51,441 nt of DNA, from NCBI RefSeq assembly GCF_001939115.1, contig NZ_MQTZ01000030.1, forward strand, positions 1 through 51,441, in the 5' to 3' direction. Below are positions 40,143-45,566 of this stretch, piece after piece. Positions within the stretch are counted from its first letter, which is position 1. Every line of letters begins with the position of its first letter. Both the position numbers and the translations under genes were made by a program. This DNA comes from Leptolyngbya sp. 'hensonii'. GTDB lineage: Bacteria; Cyanobacteriota; Cyanobacteriia; GCF-001939115. A model generated the notes under the pieces. That model saw only the letters and a program-made list of their open reading frames with translations. It did no database searches and had not been told where the DNA came from.

Positions 40143-42203
40143 TCAAACTAACTTCTTGATGTCGCCGAAGGCCCGGTAGAAGCCCCCACGAGAGGATTCG
40201 CGAATTTCTGCCACCAGATAGCGGGCTCCCTCTTCTCGAATGTCCTTCGGGAACTGCACTTTCCAGGTGGCGTTGTAGCCAGGGGAAGCAGTGCGAATCC
40301 GGAGCTGGCTGCCCTCCCGGAAACATTCCACGATCACACCGCCAGTGGTGGCAGAAGTGGTTTCCAGAGTGGTGGAAGGCAGGGAGGCAACGGCCTGGGG
40401 CGCTTTGATGTCCACGACCTGGGGGATGGTGCCTGCCTGGGCCGCCGCGATCGCCGTCTCACTAGCATCAATACAGGCCAGGGAACCATCGGTGGTGACA
40501 ATATACAGCCGATCTCGGAAAAACTGCATGGAGTAGGCGGAGCCACAGCCTGTAGCCAGTTTCCAAAGGCGATCGCCCTGCTGGTTGAAGCAGTAGAGGG
40601 AAGAATAGTTATCTCCAGCAAAGACATACTTGCCGTCCTCGGCAGCAGCACAGGAATAGACTGCGGCATCACAGGCATAGACCGTCCCGGCTTCCCCTTT
40701 CTTGGAAAAGCAATGGACCTTATTGGAGGAGGTGGCCGCATAGACACTGCTCTCTTCCTGCCAGCCAAACAGCACTATGCCCCCCGTCGGCTGATGCCAG
40801 ATCAGGCGGCCATCTTCCCAGTCATACATGGTGACGCCGCCGCTGTGCCCGTGGTAGACTCCGATTTCATCACAGCGGATCATCCAGCCGGACGCTCCCT
40901 GGCTCCGCTTCATCCACTGGGATTCGTCTTCCTGGTTGATCACTGCCACCTGGCCCCCCGCATCGGAAACCCCCAGCACCCCATCATGGATATCCAGCCA
41001 GAAAATATCCACATCGGGGGCAATCTCGTAGGCGACGCGGGGCACCTTGCTGCTCAGGTCATACACCTTGCCATCATCACAACCGGCGTAGATCCAGTCC
41101 TCATCGGCCACGATGCACTTCACCCCTTCCGGCAGGGTGAACTGACCCAGAACCTGCCCCTGATGGTCCAGGACGAACACCCGTCCCGCCTGATTGCCCA
41201 GCCAGCAATGCTGCTCATCCACAAAAATCCCCAGGGCTGGAGAACCGGAGGCAAACTTCCAGAGCACGGGAGACTGCTTCGCTGTTGATCGATTACTGGT
41301 CATCTGGCGACGGGTCACGGGCCGCTTCTGCCGCCCCCCCATCACCGCCCGTTCGTAGCCCTTCTTCAGCTTCTCGTTGATTTTCTTGGCAGCGTCCGCT
41401 TTGGCCTTTTCCGGTGAGGCATGGGTCTTGGTTTGGACCTGGCCCTGGTCTCCAATCCGACCATAGCGAATCGTCACCTCACTGCCTTTGATCACCACCT
41501 CATAGAATTTGTGGGACCCCCCATCCGCTTCGGACAGTTCCAGATAGGTTTTCTCTTCGTCACCGGCTGCGGGGGCAGCCACGGGCACTGGCACTGGCAC
41601 TGATTCTGGTGGGGTAGCCACGGGCACTGGGGTAGGTTCTGGAGTGGGTGCCGGGGTGGTTACTGGACTGGGTGTAGGAACTGGTAGGGGCTGAGGCTCG
41701 GCGAAGAACTCCAGGAAGCCAAAGTATTCTGCACCTTTGCACTGGGGGAAACGATCGGCATTGAGAAACTGGGAGCGGGCTAAGGGAAAGGAACACCACT
41801 GGGTAAACCGCTGCAAGCTTTCACCAGGAATGGAATAAGTGACCTTACCTATCCGGCGAGATGTGGAGGAGCCGTAGGCGATCAGGACCCCCTCCTCATA
41901 GGCCAGCAGAAAGGACATGTTTTCCAGTTGCGCCACGTTACCAGCCTGAGGTTTGAGGCGGTTCCATTCGTCCACTAGACAGTACTCAATCGCAAAAAAA
42001 TCGGCATGGGCAATTTCCGGAAACGCATCCGCATTGGCAAAGAGTTCCCGGTCGATCGTAGGACCGTAATCATAGGAAAAGACCCGGACAGTCTCATAGA
42101 CAAAGGGAATCAGTAACAGACCAATGAATTCCCCCTGGTCGGCGTCACAAATCACCAACCGACCCGTTTTCCCTTTCCGCAAAATATATCGGGGCTTCTC
42201 CAT
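40143..42203 (-). CDS. WGR-domain protein with predicted beta-propeller; third gene of retron cassette
   Basis: 686 residues. The first 170 are an unassigned globular region. A Pro/Thr/Val-rich linker (about 172-213) follows. A WGR domain (about 217-290) has KFYEVVIKGSEVTIRYGRIGDQGQ with YGR in place of WGR, and the usual SPEKAKADAAKKINEKLKKGY tail. WGR domains bind nucleic acid near PARP and DNA-repair proteins. Residues about 320-630 hold repeats such as IFVDEQHCWLGNQAGRVFVLD and YIVTTDGSLACID, typical of a PQQ/WD-like propeller. A conserved cap follows. The gene starts six bases after the reverse-transcriptase stop codon, so it is cotranscribed with it. Confidence 0.75.
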   Translation of the reverse strand: MEKPRYILRKGKTGRLVICDADQGEFIGLLLIPFVYETVRVFSYDYGPTIDRELFANADAFPEIAHADFFAIEYCLVDEWNRLKPQAGNVAQLENMSFLLAYEEGVLIAYGSSTSRRIGKVTYSIPGESLQRFTQWCSFPLARSQFLNADRFPQCKGAEYFGFLEFFAEPQPLPVPTPSPVTTPAPTPEPTPVPVATPPESVPVPVPVAAPAAGDEEKTYLELSEADGGSHKFYEVVIKGSEVTIRYGRIGDQGQVQTKTHASPEKAKADAAKKINEKLKKGYERAVMGGRQKRPVTRRQMTSNRSTAKQSPVLWKFASGSPALGIFVDEQHCWLGNQAGRVFVLDHQGQVLGQFTLPEGVKCIVADEDWIYAGCDDGKVYDLSSKVPRVAYEIAPDVDIFWLDIHDGVLGVSDAGGQVAVINQEDESQWMKRSQGASGWMIRCDEIGVYHGHSGGVTMYDWEDGRLIWHQPTGGIVLFGWQEESSVYAATSSNKVHCFSKKGEAGTVYACDAAVYSCAAAEDGKYVFAGDNYSSLYCFNQQGDRLWKLATGCGSAYSMQFFRDRLYIVTTDGSLACIDASETAIAAAQAGTIPQVVDIKAPQAVASLPSTTLETTSATTGGVIVECFREGSQLRIRTASPGYNATWKVQFPKDIREEGARYLVAEIRESSRGGFYRAFGDIKKLV

Positions 42204-42208
42204 GGGTA

Positions 42209-43627
42209 TTACCTGCGTTTGCGTTTGTACTTCTGTTTAATGCGCTTGACCTGAGCCAGGAGTTTCTGGCCTTTTTCGGGATTCACCATCGCGACATAAT
42301 TGGCAAACCCGTGAATCGACGCCATTAAATCTCGCGAATGGCCCCATTGTTTCCCTGCTGGTCCATCCTTCTCGATCTGGTAAAGGATGGCCCGGAAGCG
42401 TTTCAAGGTCTCCCGGTCCACATTCAATTTGTGGTTGACCACAATTCCGGTCACTTCCTGCTGGCGGGAATTCCGTAGCACCCTGGTTTTCTGATCATGC
42501 ACCGTGAAGCCTTCGTGGGTAAGGATGGCCACCGATCGCTGCAGCAGATTACAAATCTGGCGCAGCGCGTCCCCGGAGCCTGAAAAGGTGAGATCGTCGG
42601 CATAGCGGGTATAGGTGAAGCCGAGGGTTGTGGCCATCTCTGTCAGACGCCGGTCCAGACGGCGGCAGATCAGGTTCGCGATCGTCGGACTGGTGGGAGC
42701 CCCCTGGGGCAGGCGGCGATCGGTGAGGGCTACATAGTAGGTCTGGCCATCCAGGTCCACCGTCTCCACCTCCGGTTCCGTACAGAGCAGGGCCAGGATG
42801 GTGGCGACGGCTTCAGAGTAACCGAAAGAGCGAAACAGTCCTTTGACCCGGCGATAGGAAATGGTCGGGAAAAAGTCCTGCAGATCCAGGTTAATCACCA
42901 CATCCGCCCCCAGATGGGGCAAGGCATTGGTGACGATCGATCGGCCTCGACAAAATCCATGGGCGGCATCATGGGGCGTTAACCGATCTAGAATATTGTC
43001 CAGAATCCAGTACTGAACCTGTTTCAGTCGAGGCATGGGCGCTGAAATTAGCCGCAGTCCTCCCGTTTTCTTGGGAATCTGGAAGCGCACATAGTGGGAG
43101 GTAGGGCTGGTGCGACGGGCAAAAGCCAGAAATCGCAGGGCGGCGATCGTCAGACCCATGGCTGTCGCTAACTGCTCGGCAGTCAGGCAGAGGGGTAGGC
43201 GGTGCTGCTGCAAGCGATCGGACAACCCTTCAGTCTGATTCAGCCCTCCAGAGACTCCCTCCCCCAGATAGAGAATCTCCTGCTGCCGCCGCTGTTCCCA
43301 GGCAGCAGACCGTTCCTGCCGTTCCCGTTCCCGTCGCTCTTTTGTCTCCTGCTGTTTACGTCTAGATTCGGCCAGACGCTTCTCCAGCATCTGCTTCCGC
43401 AGAATTTTCTCATCCTGCAGGCGGCGGTCTTCCCGTTTTAGTTCCCTCAGTTCCCGATGGATCTCGCCCCGCCGCCGGATCTCGTCTGCCGGGTCCTGGG
43501 GTAGTTCTCCCTGAGCTGGCCAGAAGCCCAGACGGATCATTTCCTCCAGAATGATTTCCTCTCTGGAGGTTTGCCGGATACGATCCCACAGTTCCTCACG
43601 GGTGCGGGGGGGAGATGGCTCGGACAT
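42209..43627 (-). CDS. Retron-type reverse transcriptase with coiled-coil N-terminus
   Basis: 472 residues. Residues about 10-118 are a charged, Arg/Glu-rich coiled coil not found in the shortest retron RTs. The RT core follows, with RFQIPKKTGGLRLISAP, the retron-specific NAxxH motif (NALPH, 234-238) and metal-ligand D248 in NLDLQDFF. Further motifs are QGAPTSP (308-314), catalytic YADD (342-345) and VTG (392-394). NAxxH and VTG distinguish retron RTs from group II intron and other bacterial RTs. A structured intergenic RNA candidate lies directly upstream. A SWIM-domain gene precedes it and a WGR/propeller gene follows, in one minus-strand unit. Confidence 0.93.
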   Translation of the reverse strand: MSEPSPPRTREELWDRIRQTSREEIILEEMIRLGFWPAQGELPQDPADEIRRRGEIHRELRELKREDRRLQDEKILRKQMLEKRLAESRRKQQETKERRERERQERSAAWEQRRQQEILYLGEGVSGGLNQTEGLSDRLQQHRLPLCLTAEQLATAMGLTIAALRFLAFARRTSPTSHYVRFQIPKKTGGLRLISAPMPRLKQVQYWILDNILDRLTPHDAAHGFCRGRSIVTNALPHLGADVVINLDLQDFFPTISYRRVKGLFRSFGYSEAVATILALLCTEPEVETVDLDGQTYYVALTDRRLPQGAPTSPTIANLICRRLDRRLTEMATTLGFTYTRYADDLTFSGSGDALRQICNLLQRSVAILTHEGFTVHDQKTRVLRNSRQQEVTGIVVNHKLNVDRETLKRFRAILYQIEKDGPAGKQWGHSRDLMASIHGFANYVAMVNPEKGQKLLAQVKRIKQKYKRKRR

Positions 43628-43689
43628 GACCGAAATGGATAGGGTTGGTGATGCGGTAAGAGCGGGACAACCATTTGGGCTGCCCCACT

Positions 43690-43900
43690 GGCGGAACCTT
43701 CCTTCGTAAACCCCCTGGAACTGGATCGCTCAACTCAAGCGGCTCCCGGGTACTATCGCTCGTTAGCTTCGCGGAAACGACACCGTAACAGCGATAGTAC
43801 CCGGAGAGACGCACAGTTAAGAGCGGGCCAGTGATGCGCGTTTAGACTAACCACAAGGATGGCGATCCACCATCCGGATTGCAAGGTTTGACGTTCCGCC
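43690..43900 (-). ncRNA. Candidate retron msr-msd RNA
   Basis: Read on the minus strand (5' end near 43900). The ends are complementary: ggcggaac (43690-43697) with gttccgcc (43893-43900), 8 bp. Allowing a 7-nt bulge, 11 bp pair (43690-43700 with 43883-43887 plus 43895-43900), as expected for a1/a2. A short hairpin (43857-43862/43870-43875) would be msr. A 15-bp perfect stem, ccgggtactatcgct (43746-43760) with agcgatagtacccgg (43790-43804), plus 4 bp after a bulge, would be msd. The canonical TAGC branching site is not obvious; the sequence after a1 reads TTGC. Structure is inferred by eye. Confidence 0.7.
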
Positions 43901-43901
43901 T

Positions 43902-45566
43902 CTACCGCTGTGCCGGGTAGCCTGACCCATACTGATACCCGAATTGCATTCTGAGCGCCAGCATGTGCTCACATGGACCTTTACGCAGCTTGTTTTGCTG
44001 GTAAAAGTTGCAGCTACAACCTGCCTGGATCATACGGTGATCCCGATCGATCGTCACGACCGGTTCATAAGTCTTTTCTTTCTCCTGGACGGTCCCTTGT
44101 AACAGCAAGACCCCAGCACCGTCTCGGGTGGCATGGGTCACCTGCACCCCCTTCTGCTTCAGGAAGCGGGTAGCCTTCTCCTCCCGATCGTTGGCGAACC
44201 GGAGCTGATCCAGGGGCAGGGGGTCCCGACTCAATTCCCGCACCCGATAGACTTGCTTGTTCAGGTCATAGATGGCCCGACCCGCCTGGGTATAAGCTCC
44301 CAACGCCCCCTGGACGATCGCCCGATCCAATCCCATCCGCCTTGCCAGGGCCTCTGGCGCTTCCCGCCAGTTTTGCCGCAGAGCCTGGAAAACCTGCTGT
44401 TTAGTCCAGTCATCCACCTCGGCACGGGGAGCCATTAAATCGAAATTCCCCGCCTGGGACCAGTCATTCGCAGTCCAGCCGGAAAGACCCAGGGTGAAGG
44501 CCATGTCCCCCAGGTCAGCCACGTAGAAGGAGGGCATGCCCGTGCCCAGCAGATGCACCGTGAACTTGCGGGCTACAGGAATGAGCCGTTCCAAAAAGAG
44601 AAGTCGCCGCCGCCCCCAGACCCGGATCTCCTGGGCTTCAGGGCCTGGGTAGGGAGATCGGGCACAAACCACCTCGATCTCCCAGGGTTCAAACACAATC
44701 CGCACGGGCTGACCAGGTTGTAGATGATACCGCAGGCTGCGGGGTCCCTGCCGCTCTTTGTGACGACGCAGGACAAAACAGATATTGTGAATGTCGATCG
44801 GGTGCAGGTCGAATTGGGTGGCAGGCAGGGCCATAGCCGAACTCACCTGTAGGAAGCCCCGCACCCAGCTATCGGGCAGGTCGATCTTGACTTCTTTGTA
44901 GGTCTCTTCCCCAGTAGTCTGCACCTCGAATCCGGTGGGATCGACCTCAAACTGGGTCTGCTTGTAGCTGCGAATCTTCTGGAATTCGTTATAGAGGGCT
45001 GCGGAGTAATCAATATTGGTGGTGCCACAGGCAAATTCCCCAATGTTCTGGAAGACCTCATAACTAGCACTTAGCCGTCCATAGCTGGATTCGTCTCGAC
45101 TGAAGCATTCGAAGAAAATTTCATCCGGATGAACCGTAATCACCGGGTCAAACAGAAACAGTAGATCCCGCTCTTTCTCATAGCAATATTGCATGAACTG
45201 GTACTTGGCTTTCTCGAAGGGAGCCATCCGCTCCCGATGAAACCGGTTCAGCACCATCAGTTCCTGTTGCAACGCCTGCACCCGCTCGCCGATCCCCAAC
45301 CGTTGGGCTGCCACCAGTTGCCAGTCAATCTCGGCCTGCTGGGCGGCCCACTCCTTGTAGGCCGTTTTGTCCTTGGGCTGGAATCGTAGATCAGCCACGA
45401 CCACATCGTGCAGGGCACTGATGGCTTCGCGAAAGGCCACATGCTGGCGTAACTCCCCTCGAAAGAAGGTTGGCTCTCGCTTCAAATCAGGGGCAAAAGA
45501 CATTTGGGTCCGATCGCCCCGTTGCAATACAGAGGTACTACCTTTGTAGGTGTGGTTAAATTCCAT
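43902..45566 (-). CDS. SWIM zinc-finger protein (WHSWIM-like); first gene of retron cassette
   Basis: 554 residues, ATG with a strong 'aggagt' ribosome-binding site. The C-terminal SWIM finger has the CxC...CxH ligands C517, C519, C532 and H534 in GCSCNFYQQNKLRKGPCEHML. Residues about 385-455 (VFQALRQNWREAPEALARRMGLDRAIVQGALGAY) look like a winged-helix region. The N-terminal 350 residues are unassigned. SWIM fingers bind DNA or proteins. Retron classifications, as I recall, include a type whose accessory protein is called WHSWIM. The stop codon is two bases from the start of the candidate retron RNA. Confidence 0.75.
   Translation of the reverse strand: MEFNHTYKGSTSVLQRGDRTQMSFAPDLKREPTFFRGELRQHVAFREAISALHDVVVADLRFQPKDKTAYKEWAAQQAEIDWQLVAAQRLGIGERVQALQQELMVLNRFHRERMAPFEKAKYQFMQYCYEKERDLLFLFDPVITVHPDEIFFECFSRDESSYGRLSASYEVFQNIGEFACGTTNIDYSAALYNEFQKIRSYKQTQFEVDPTGFEVQTTGEETYKEVKIDLPDSWVRGFLQVSSAMALPATQFDLHPIDIHNICFVLRRHKERQGPRSLRYHLQPGQPVRIVFEPWEIEVVCARSPYPGPEAQEIRVWGRRRLLFLERLIPVARKFTVHLLGTGMPSFYVADLGDMAFTLGLSGWTANDWSQAGNFDLMAPRAEVDDWTKQQVFQALRQNWREAPEALARRMGLDRAIVQGALGAYTQAGRAIYDLNKQVYRVRELSRDPLPLDQLRFANDREEKATRFLKQKGVQVTHATRDGAGVLLLQGTVQEKEKTYEPVVTIDRDHRMIQAGCSCNFYQQNKLRKGPCEHMLALRMQFGYQYGSGYPAQR

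What the first reader, a model, noticed from the sequence alone, without database searches (positions are those of the whole stretch)
40143..45566. Retron cassette with a SWIM-finger protein and a WGR/beta-propeller protein
Seen: three minus-strand genes, tightly spaced, in the order SWIM protein, structured spacer, RT, WGR/propeller protein. The RT has the retron hallmarks NAxxH, YADD and VTG. Known: retrons pair an RT and msr-msd RNA with effector proteins and act in anti-phage defence. I recall a type with a WHSWIM protein plus an ARM-repeat partner. Inference: here the partner is a WGR domain followed by a propeller, which may be a different effector arrangement. WGR and SWIM modules both contact nucleic acids, so the effector may sense the msDNA or damaged DNA.
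Basis: partly seen in the sequence, partly recalled or inferred. Interest (0 to 1): 0.88.

Follow-up and report, generated by a model that had tools for sequence, protein, structure and literature searches.

The report
Type XIII retron with fourth propeller gene
This is a cyanobacterial copy of a known but untested bacterial immune element (a type XIII retron); it carries an extra WGR/propeller protein that keeps turning up beside this retron in two distant phyla, and its companion 'SWIM' protein is predicted to have the fold of a DNA sliding clamp, which suggests the system acts on replicating DNA.

Summary
The cassette is real. RT and SWIM match PADLOC's type XIII retron models end to end. 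The 274-nt spacer holds an msr-msd RNA conserved across several phyla with strong covariation. So the retron kind is known. The canonical third protein itself starts with a WGR domain followed by HEAT repeats (PADLOC WGR_XIII), and this genome still encodes it, intact, on another contig. The WGR/propeller protein is a fourth, facultative protein that PADLOC does not model. It sits in or beside type XIII loci in Cyanobacteria and Bacteroidota in at least five arrangements, and all copies from cyanobacterial type XIII genomes, apart from one paralogue, form one clade that excludes copies from genomes without the retron. The family also occurs alone elsewhere. Unexpected: the AlphaFold model of the SWIM protein has a PCNA-like sliding-clamp fold (Z 17, 216 residues), with no sequence support. 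In four cyanobacteria the RNA lies beside SWIM, away from the RT. New variant of a known kind; the mechanism is inferred.

The parts
43902..45566 (-). SWIM_XIII protein, 554 aa
   Evidence: PADLOC SWIM_XIII E 5e-243 over residues 1-542; conserved in 27 relatives
44469..45467 (-). Predicted sliding-clamp (PCNA-like) fold, residues 34-366, with a helical insertion at about 57-137
   Evidence: AlphaFold model; Foldseek E 6e-9, top 50 all PCNA or 9-1-1 clamps; VIA Z 17.2, 216 residues, 2.8 A. Fold only, no sequence support
44241..44411 (-). Probable winged helix, residues 386-442
   Evidence: Helix-helix-helix-strand-strand in the model; weak HTH/WH Pfam hits in a few relatives
43965..44018 (-). 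SWIM zinc-finger motif CxC...CxH, residues 517-534
   Evidence: Pfam SWIM; the C, C, C and H are invariant in 21 diverse relatives
43690..43900 (-). msr-msd non-coding RNA, from a1 (43893-43900) to a2 (43690-43697)
   Evidence: Conserved core 43702-43887; covariation; a1/a2; single copy in the genome
43739..43812 (-). Long covarying hairpin, probably the msd template stem
   Evidence: Helices 3-5 of the consensus; 21 of the 22 long-stem pairs have two-sided changes
42209..43627 (-). Type XIII retron reverse transcriptase, 472 aa
   Evidence: PADLOC RT_XIII E 3.5e-199; NAxxH, YADD, VTG; RT tree
40143..42203 (-). WGR/beta-propeller protein, 686 aa, facultative fourth component
   Evidence: Pfam WGR and PQQ/propeller; linkage in two phyla; clade
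41694..42203 (-). N-terminal domain (residues 1-170) found only in this copy of the protein
   Evidence: Similar (30-37%) to the N-terminus of the second propeller protein that follows WGR/propeller genes in loci without a retron
41346..41552 (-). WGR domain, residues 218-286
   Evidence: Pfam E 1.2e-19
40431..41273 (-). Beta-propeller, residues about 311-591, best match a seven-bladed design
   Evidence: Pfam PQQ/propeller; VIA Z 27.3, 267 residues
40146..40340 (-). Conserved C-terminal module of about 65 aa
   Evidence: Alignment; the same module is fused to the RT in L136 and doubled on a VWA protein in the L141 retron locus

Best explanation
This is a type XIII retron. Shown by sequence: the RT, the msr-msd RNA and the SWIM protein are co-located, and the third core protein (WGR-HEAT) is encoded on another contig. 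A WGR/propeller protein is added as a fourth component, in an apparent operon with the RT. Inferred mechanism: the RT copies part of the RNA into msDNA; the RT-msDNA particle binds the SWIM protein (clamp-like fold, winged helix, zinc finger) and the WGR-HEAT protein and keeps them inactive. Phage replication or DNA damage, sensed through the msDNA or through DNA ends bound by WGR domains, releases them onto DNA, where a clamp-like, non-enzymatic DNA-binding complex blocks replication or kills the cell. The WGR/propeller protein most likely widens sensing: WGR for DNA ends, propeller and C-terminal module for docking to the RT particle. Identity about 0.95; propeller protein a true component about 0.8; the molecular mechanism about 0.3.
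For: PADLOC matches. ncRNA covariation and a1/a2. In 390 cyanobacterial genomes RT (E<=1e-150), SWIM and WGR-HEAT share 17 genomes, although they are split between distant loci in several of these. WGR/propeller in 9 of 17 type XIII genomes against 14 of 373 others, Fisher 3e-8; in the second order 9 of its 10 carriers have the RT, Fisher 2e-6. Five or more gene orders put it in the locus. Dedicated clade, 97/91. C-terminal module fused to the RT in one genome. Clamp fold. WGR binds 5'-phosphorylated DNA ends in PARP2/3 (PMC4081085, PMC8190142).
Against: No phage-defence test, no msDNA and no interaction has been shown. The propeller protein is absent from about half of type XIII genomes and stands alone in Streptomyces, Deinococcus, Hymenobacter and some cyanobacteria. 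Fisher tests ignore shared ancestry. No catalytic domain is recognised in any partner, so toxicity is unexplained. The clamp fold rests on one AlphaFold model (pLDDT 73).
Confidence: 0.6

Rival explanations
1. The WGR/propeller gene is a passenger: a DNA-damage or housekeeping protein that merely sits next to the retron in some genomes, while the true system is RT + RNA + SWIM + WGR-HEAT.
For: Solitary copies in Streptomyces, Deinococcus and Hymenobacter and in cyanobacteria without the retron. In some of those it is followed by a propeller partner, fused in L165 to a DNA alkylation-repair domain. Eight of 17 cyanobacterial type XIII genomes lack a full-length copy.
Against: Repeated placement in the locus in different orders and in two phyla. 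Copies from type XIII genomes, linked or not, form one clade to the exclusion of the others, except G087's second copy. Its C-terminal module is fused to the RT in L136.
Confidence: 0.2
2. The WGR/propeller protein replaces the WGR-HEAT partner at the protein level in this organism.
For: It is the only WGR protein in the cassette; both partners carry WGR.
Against: An intact 1071-aa WGR-HEAT protein, 1191 bits to WGR_XIII, is in the genome. In G087, L024, L190, L193 and L195 both proteins occur in one locus.
Confidence: 0.05
3. The retron does not act against phages but in DNA repair or replication-stress control, with the clamp-like SWIM protein and WGR proteins as DNA-damage factors.
For: WGR and clamp folds are typical of DNA-break and replication factors (PMC4081085). 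Loci are split and chromosomal; none was found in viral contigs beyond one remote RT.
Against: All retrons with a tested role, as far as I know, defend against phages or act as toxin-antitoxin units; patchy distribution (22 of 390 genomes) fits defence better than housekeeping.
Confidence: 0.15

Closest known systems
Type XIII retron (PADLOC models RT_XIII, SWIM_XIII, WGR_XIII, HEAT-ARM_XIII; classification of Mestre et al. 2020, cited in PMC9252829, paper itself not readable here)
   Same: RT, SWIM protein and msr-msd RNA in the usual order; WGR-HEAT protein present in the genome
   Different: WGR-HEAT is encoded on another contig; a WGR/propeller protein not covered by any PADLOC model is added next to the RT
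WGR/propeller proteins annotated 'WGR domain-containing protein' (Streptomyces, Deinococcus, Hymenobacter, Calothrix)
   Same: Full-length similarity, 47-60% identity
   Different: No retron beside those in the annotated regions read; the window copy has an extra N-terminal domain and a proline-rich linker
PCNA / 9-1-1 sliding clamps
   Same: Predicted fold of SWIM residues 34-366
   Different: No detectable sequence similarity; long helical insertion; C-terminal winged helix and SWIM finger; ring formation untested

Membership tests
Retron (general) | RT of the retron clade with NAxxH, YADD, VTG | tested here: met
Retron (general) | Structured msr-msd RNA with flanking a1/a2 inverted repeats | tested here: met
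Retron (general) | Production of msDNA (branched RNA-linked cDNA) | not testable with these tools
   needs nucleic-acid extraction
Retron (general) | Phage-defence activity of an associated effector | not testable with these tools
   needs phage assays
Type XIII retron | RT of type XIII | tested here: met
   660 bits against 353 for the next model
Type XIII retron | SWIM_XIII protein next to the RT | tested here: met
   805 bits over residues 1-542, upstream of the RNA and RT
Type XIII retron | WGR-HEAT / ARM partner in the genome | tested here: met
   C56:8633-11848, 1191 bits
Type XIII retron | WGR-HEAT / ARM partner in the same locus | tested here: not met
   not in the 5.9 kb upstream of SWIM in the window, nor downstream of the RT; encoded on another contig
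PCNA-like sliding clamp (SWIM protein) | Two-domain clamp fold | tested here: met
   predicted model only: Z 17.2, 216 residues, 2.8 A
PCNA-like sliding clamp (SWIM protein) | Sequence similarity to clamp families | tested here: inconclusive
   no hit by profile or Pfam
PCNA-like sliding clamp (SWIM protein) | Ring assembly around DNA | not testable with these tools
   no complex prediction or biochemistry available
MoxR/VWA-SWIM systems (E. coli yehI/yehQ) | Homology of SWIM and WGR-HEAT proteins to YehQ and YehI | tested here: inconclusive
   no significant profile match; single-sequence targets

The most novel reading that the evidence does not exclude
Type XIII retrons use a sliding-clamp-like protein as effector: the msDNA particle restrains a PCNA-fold, winged-helix, SWIM-finger protein together with DNA-end-binding WGR proteins (HEAT and propeller forms), and on infection this clamp-like assembly is released onto phage or host replication forks. 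No retron with a clamp-fold effector is known to me.
Probability: 0.35. Interest if true: 0.85.

Novelty: new variant of a known kind. Interest (0 to 1): 0.6.

Why it matters
Type XIII is one of the retron types for which I found no experimental account, and none of its proteins carries a recognised toxic enzyme. A clamp fold in the SWIM protein and two different WGR partners give a concrete, testable idea of how it could act: on replicating or broken DNA. The separation of the RT from its RNA and effectors in some cyanobacteria, with co-occurrence kept, would show that a retron can work in trans in nature and that neighbourhood-based defence finders miss such systems.

Tried and rejected
E. 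coli yehI/yehQ (WGR-HEAT-like DUF4132 plus SWIM, in a MoxR/VWA locus) as relatives of the type XIII pair: hhalign found nothing beyond a few SWIM-finger residues. Rfam: no family matches the spacer. PCNA by sequence: profile against PDB chains, Pfam on 27 members and one archaeal-virus protein taken for the clamp all gave nothing; the last is weak because it is a single sequence whose identity I inferred from its length. Viral contigs: no WGR/propeller protein and only one remote RT. PDB by sequence: no SWIM relative. One plasmid search was wasted on an out-of-frame query and repeated. The WGR/propeller model had only four sequences, so its N-terminal domain is unresolved. PDB fold search with it returns only propellers. 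Literature: no readable paper describes type XIII proteins; Mestre 2020 is not held.

Full report
The observation. The three ORFs, their order and spacing are as described. PADLOC assigns the RT to RT_XIII (E 3.5e-199, residues 5-471) and the SWIM protein to SWIM_XIII (E 5e-243, residues 1-542), both nearly end to end. The RT has NAxxH, YADD and VTG. Pfam confirms SWIM, RVT_1, WGR and a PQQ/beta-propeller region.

The RNA. The 274-nt spacer folds far below its shuffles (z -5.8). I aligned 31 spacers from Cyanobacteria, Acidobacteriota, Myxococcota, Pseudomonadota, Bacteroidota and others. RNAalifold gives 49 pairs, 43 with two-sided changes that keep pairing. With that structure, 92.8% of cells pair; shuffles give 69.5% and slid versions 34-45%; the covariation score is 0.616 against 0.182 in shuffles. 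The flanks pair with each other inside each locus (mean longest perfect duplex 9.7 bp) much better than with flanks of other loci (5.7 bp); 43 of 52 reach 8 bp. This is the a1/a2 hallmark. In the window a1 is 43893-43900 and a2 is 43690-43697. The window genome has a single copy. Retron identity is therefore well supported by sequence; msDNA itself is not shown.

The third protein. Most relatives carry a protein of about 940-1140 aa next to SWIM. PADLOC calls it WGR_XIII, with weaker HEAT-ARM_XIII matches; Pfam sees HEAT repeats and, in several, a weak N-terminal WGR. So the canonical partner is WGR + HEAT. The window lacks it, but the same genome encodes an intact 1071-aa copy at C56:8633-11848, with WGR and HEAT by Pfam and 1191 bits to WGR_XIII.

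Co-occurrence and splitting. In 390 genomes of the class, the RT is found in 22 (17 at E<=1e-150), SWIM in 19 and WGR-HEAT in 18; 17 genomes have both SWIM and WGR-HEAT, and these are the 17 strong RT genomes. In several the genes are far apart: in G221, RT and RNA lie about 250 kb from SWIM + WGR-HEAT; in G194 and G116 they are on different contigs. In G340, G050, G379 and G122 the RNA lies just downstream of SWIM and not before the RT. A whole-genome search finds only that one copy in G340, G050 and G122; G379's copy was found by the profile only. Those four RTs form a clade (100/99). In G340, G050 and G379 the RT and RNA are on different contigs, so the RT must act in trans if it uses this RNA; in G122 they are about 2.5 kb apart.

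The WGR/propeller protein. PADLOC gives only a 17.6-bit WGR-domain match. Strong homologues occur in 9 of the 17 type XIII genomes and in 14 of the other 373 (Fisher 3e-8). In the order of Emticicia (194 genomes), 9 of 10 carriers have the RT, which is in 39 (Fisher 2e-6). These tests ignore shared ancestry. Position: after the RT, same strand (window; G087, where the genes overlap by 1 bp; L193); between SWIM and the RNA (L190); between WGR-HEAT and SWIM (L024, L195); before WGR-HEAT (L137); convergent with the RT (L128, L134, L135; in L130 a 253-aa gene lies between); L191 and L192 have it just before the RT. In a tree of 36 sequences, all copies from cyanobacterial type XIII genomes, linked or not, group together (97/91) apart from copies in genomes without the retron; the second G087 copy, which has a different neighbour, falls outside. 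The family also stands alone in Streptomyces, Deinococcus and Hymenobacter. Its C-terminal module of about 65 aa is fused to the RT in G379 (L136) and occurs twice on a VWA protein between SWIM and the RNA in G255 (L141). I conclude that it is a facultative, partly specialised fourth component.

Structure. The SWIM model (19 sequences, mean pLDDT 72.8, pTM 0.71) gives Foldseek hits that are all sliding clamps in the top 50 (best E 6e-9). VIA-align gives Z 17.2 over 216 residues at 2.8 A, model 34-366, almost a whole PCNA subunit, including Rad9-Hus1-Rad1 chains. Clamp proteins, including phage DnaN-like ones, also dominate the viral library. The second half of the model has the strand-helix order expected of a clamp domain. 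Arg199, Arg319 and Arg320 are invariant in 21 diverse relatives and lie at or next to the helices that would line the ring; this last point is my reading, not a computed surface. No sequence method sees a clamp, so this is a fold prediction only. The WGR/propeller model is good only over WGR, propeller and C-terminal module; the propeller matches seven-bladed designs and WD40 proteins (Z 27).

Mechanism. Shown here: gene content, conserved RNA, co-occurrence, linkage. Known from papers: PARP2/3 WGR domains recognise 5'-phosphorylated DNA ends (PMC4081085, PMC8190142); retrons commonly hold a toxic effector in check until infection (abstract of PMC12548924); retron Eco8 msDNA senses phage SSB (abstract of PMC13158370). 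Inferred: RT-msDNA restrains SWIM and WGR-HEAT; the trigger is phage replication or DNA ends; the outcome is a DNA-bound block rather than an enzymatic cut, because no catalytic domain was recognised in any partner. The WGR/propeller protein probably adds a DNA-end or protein sensor docked on the particle.

Novelty. The kind is known. New, as far as the tools and readable literature show: the recurrent fourth protein, the clamp-like fold of the SWIM protein, and the natural separation of the RT from its RNA and partners. The primary classification paper could not be read here, so it may already mention some of this.

Noticed in passing
L131/L147 (G340), L138/L150 (G050), L136/L151 (G379), L132 (G122): The retron RNA lies just downstream of SWIM and not before the RT; in three genomes RT and RNA are on different contigs, so the RT would have to work in trans. 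These RTs form one clade.
   Followed up: partly
L132:8840-9613 and L138:8630-9313: A ribonuclease III gene lies directly upstream of the retron RT, same strand, gaps of about 105 and 32 nt, in two genomes of that split clade; it could process the RNA or be chance.
   Followed up: partly
L017, L204, L206, L207, L208, L210: Two tandem copies of the retron RNA in front of the RT.
   Followed up: no
L165:7736-11251, L166, L167, L168, L170: In cyanobacteria the non-retron WGR/propeller gene is followed by a second propeller protein whose N-terminus resembles residues 1-85 of the window protein; in L165 it is fused to a DNA alkylation-repair domain.
   Followed up: partly
L141:7170-9011 and L223:3351-5210: VWA proteins carry the C-terminal module of the WGR/propeller protein (two copies in L141, inside a retron locus; one in a Deinococcus ficus plasmid).
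   Followed up: partly
L144 and L171 (G025, G109; 1.7-1.8 Mb genomes): Divergent RT (about 36%) and SWIM (about 30%) with a 930-990 aa neighbour, but no recognisable type XIII RNA upstream; possibly a sister type.
   Followed up: no
L001, L002, L004, L005, L006: The window genome has five other reverse-transcriptase genes over the Pfam cut-off; not examined.
   Followed up: no
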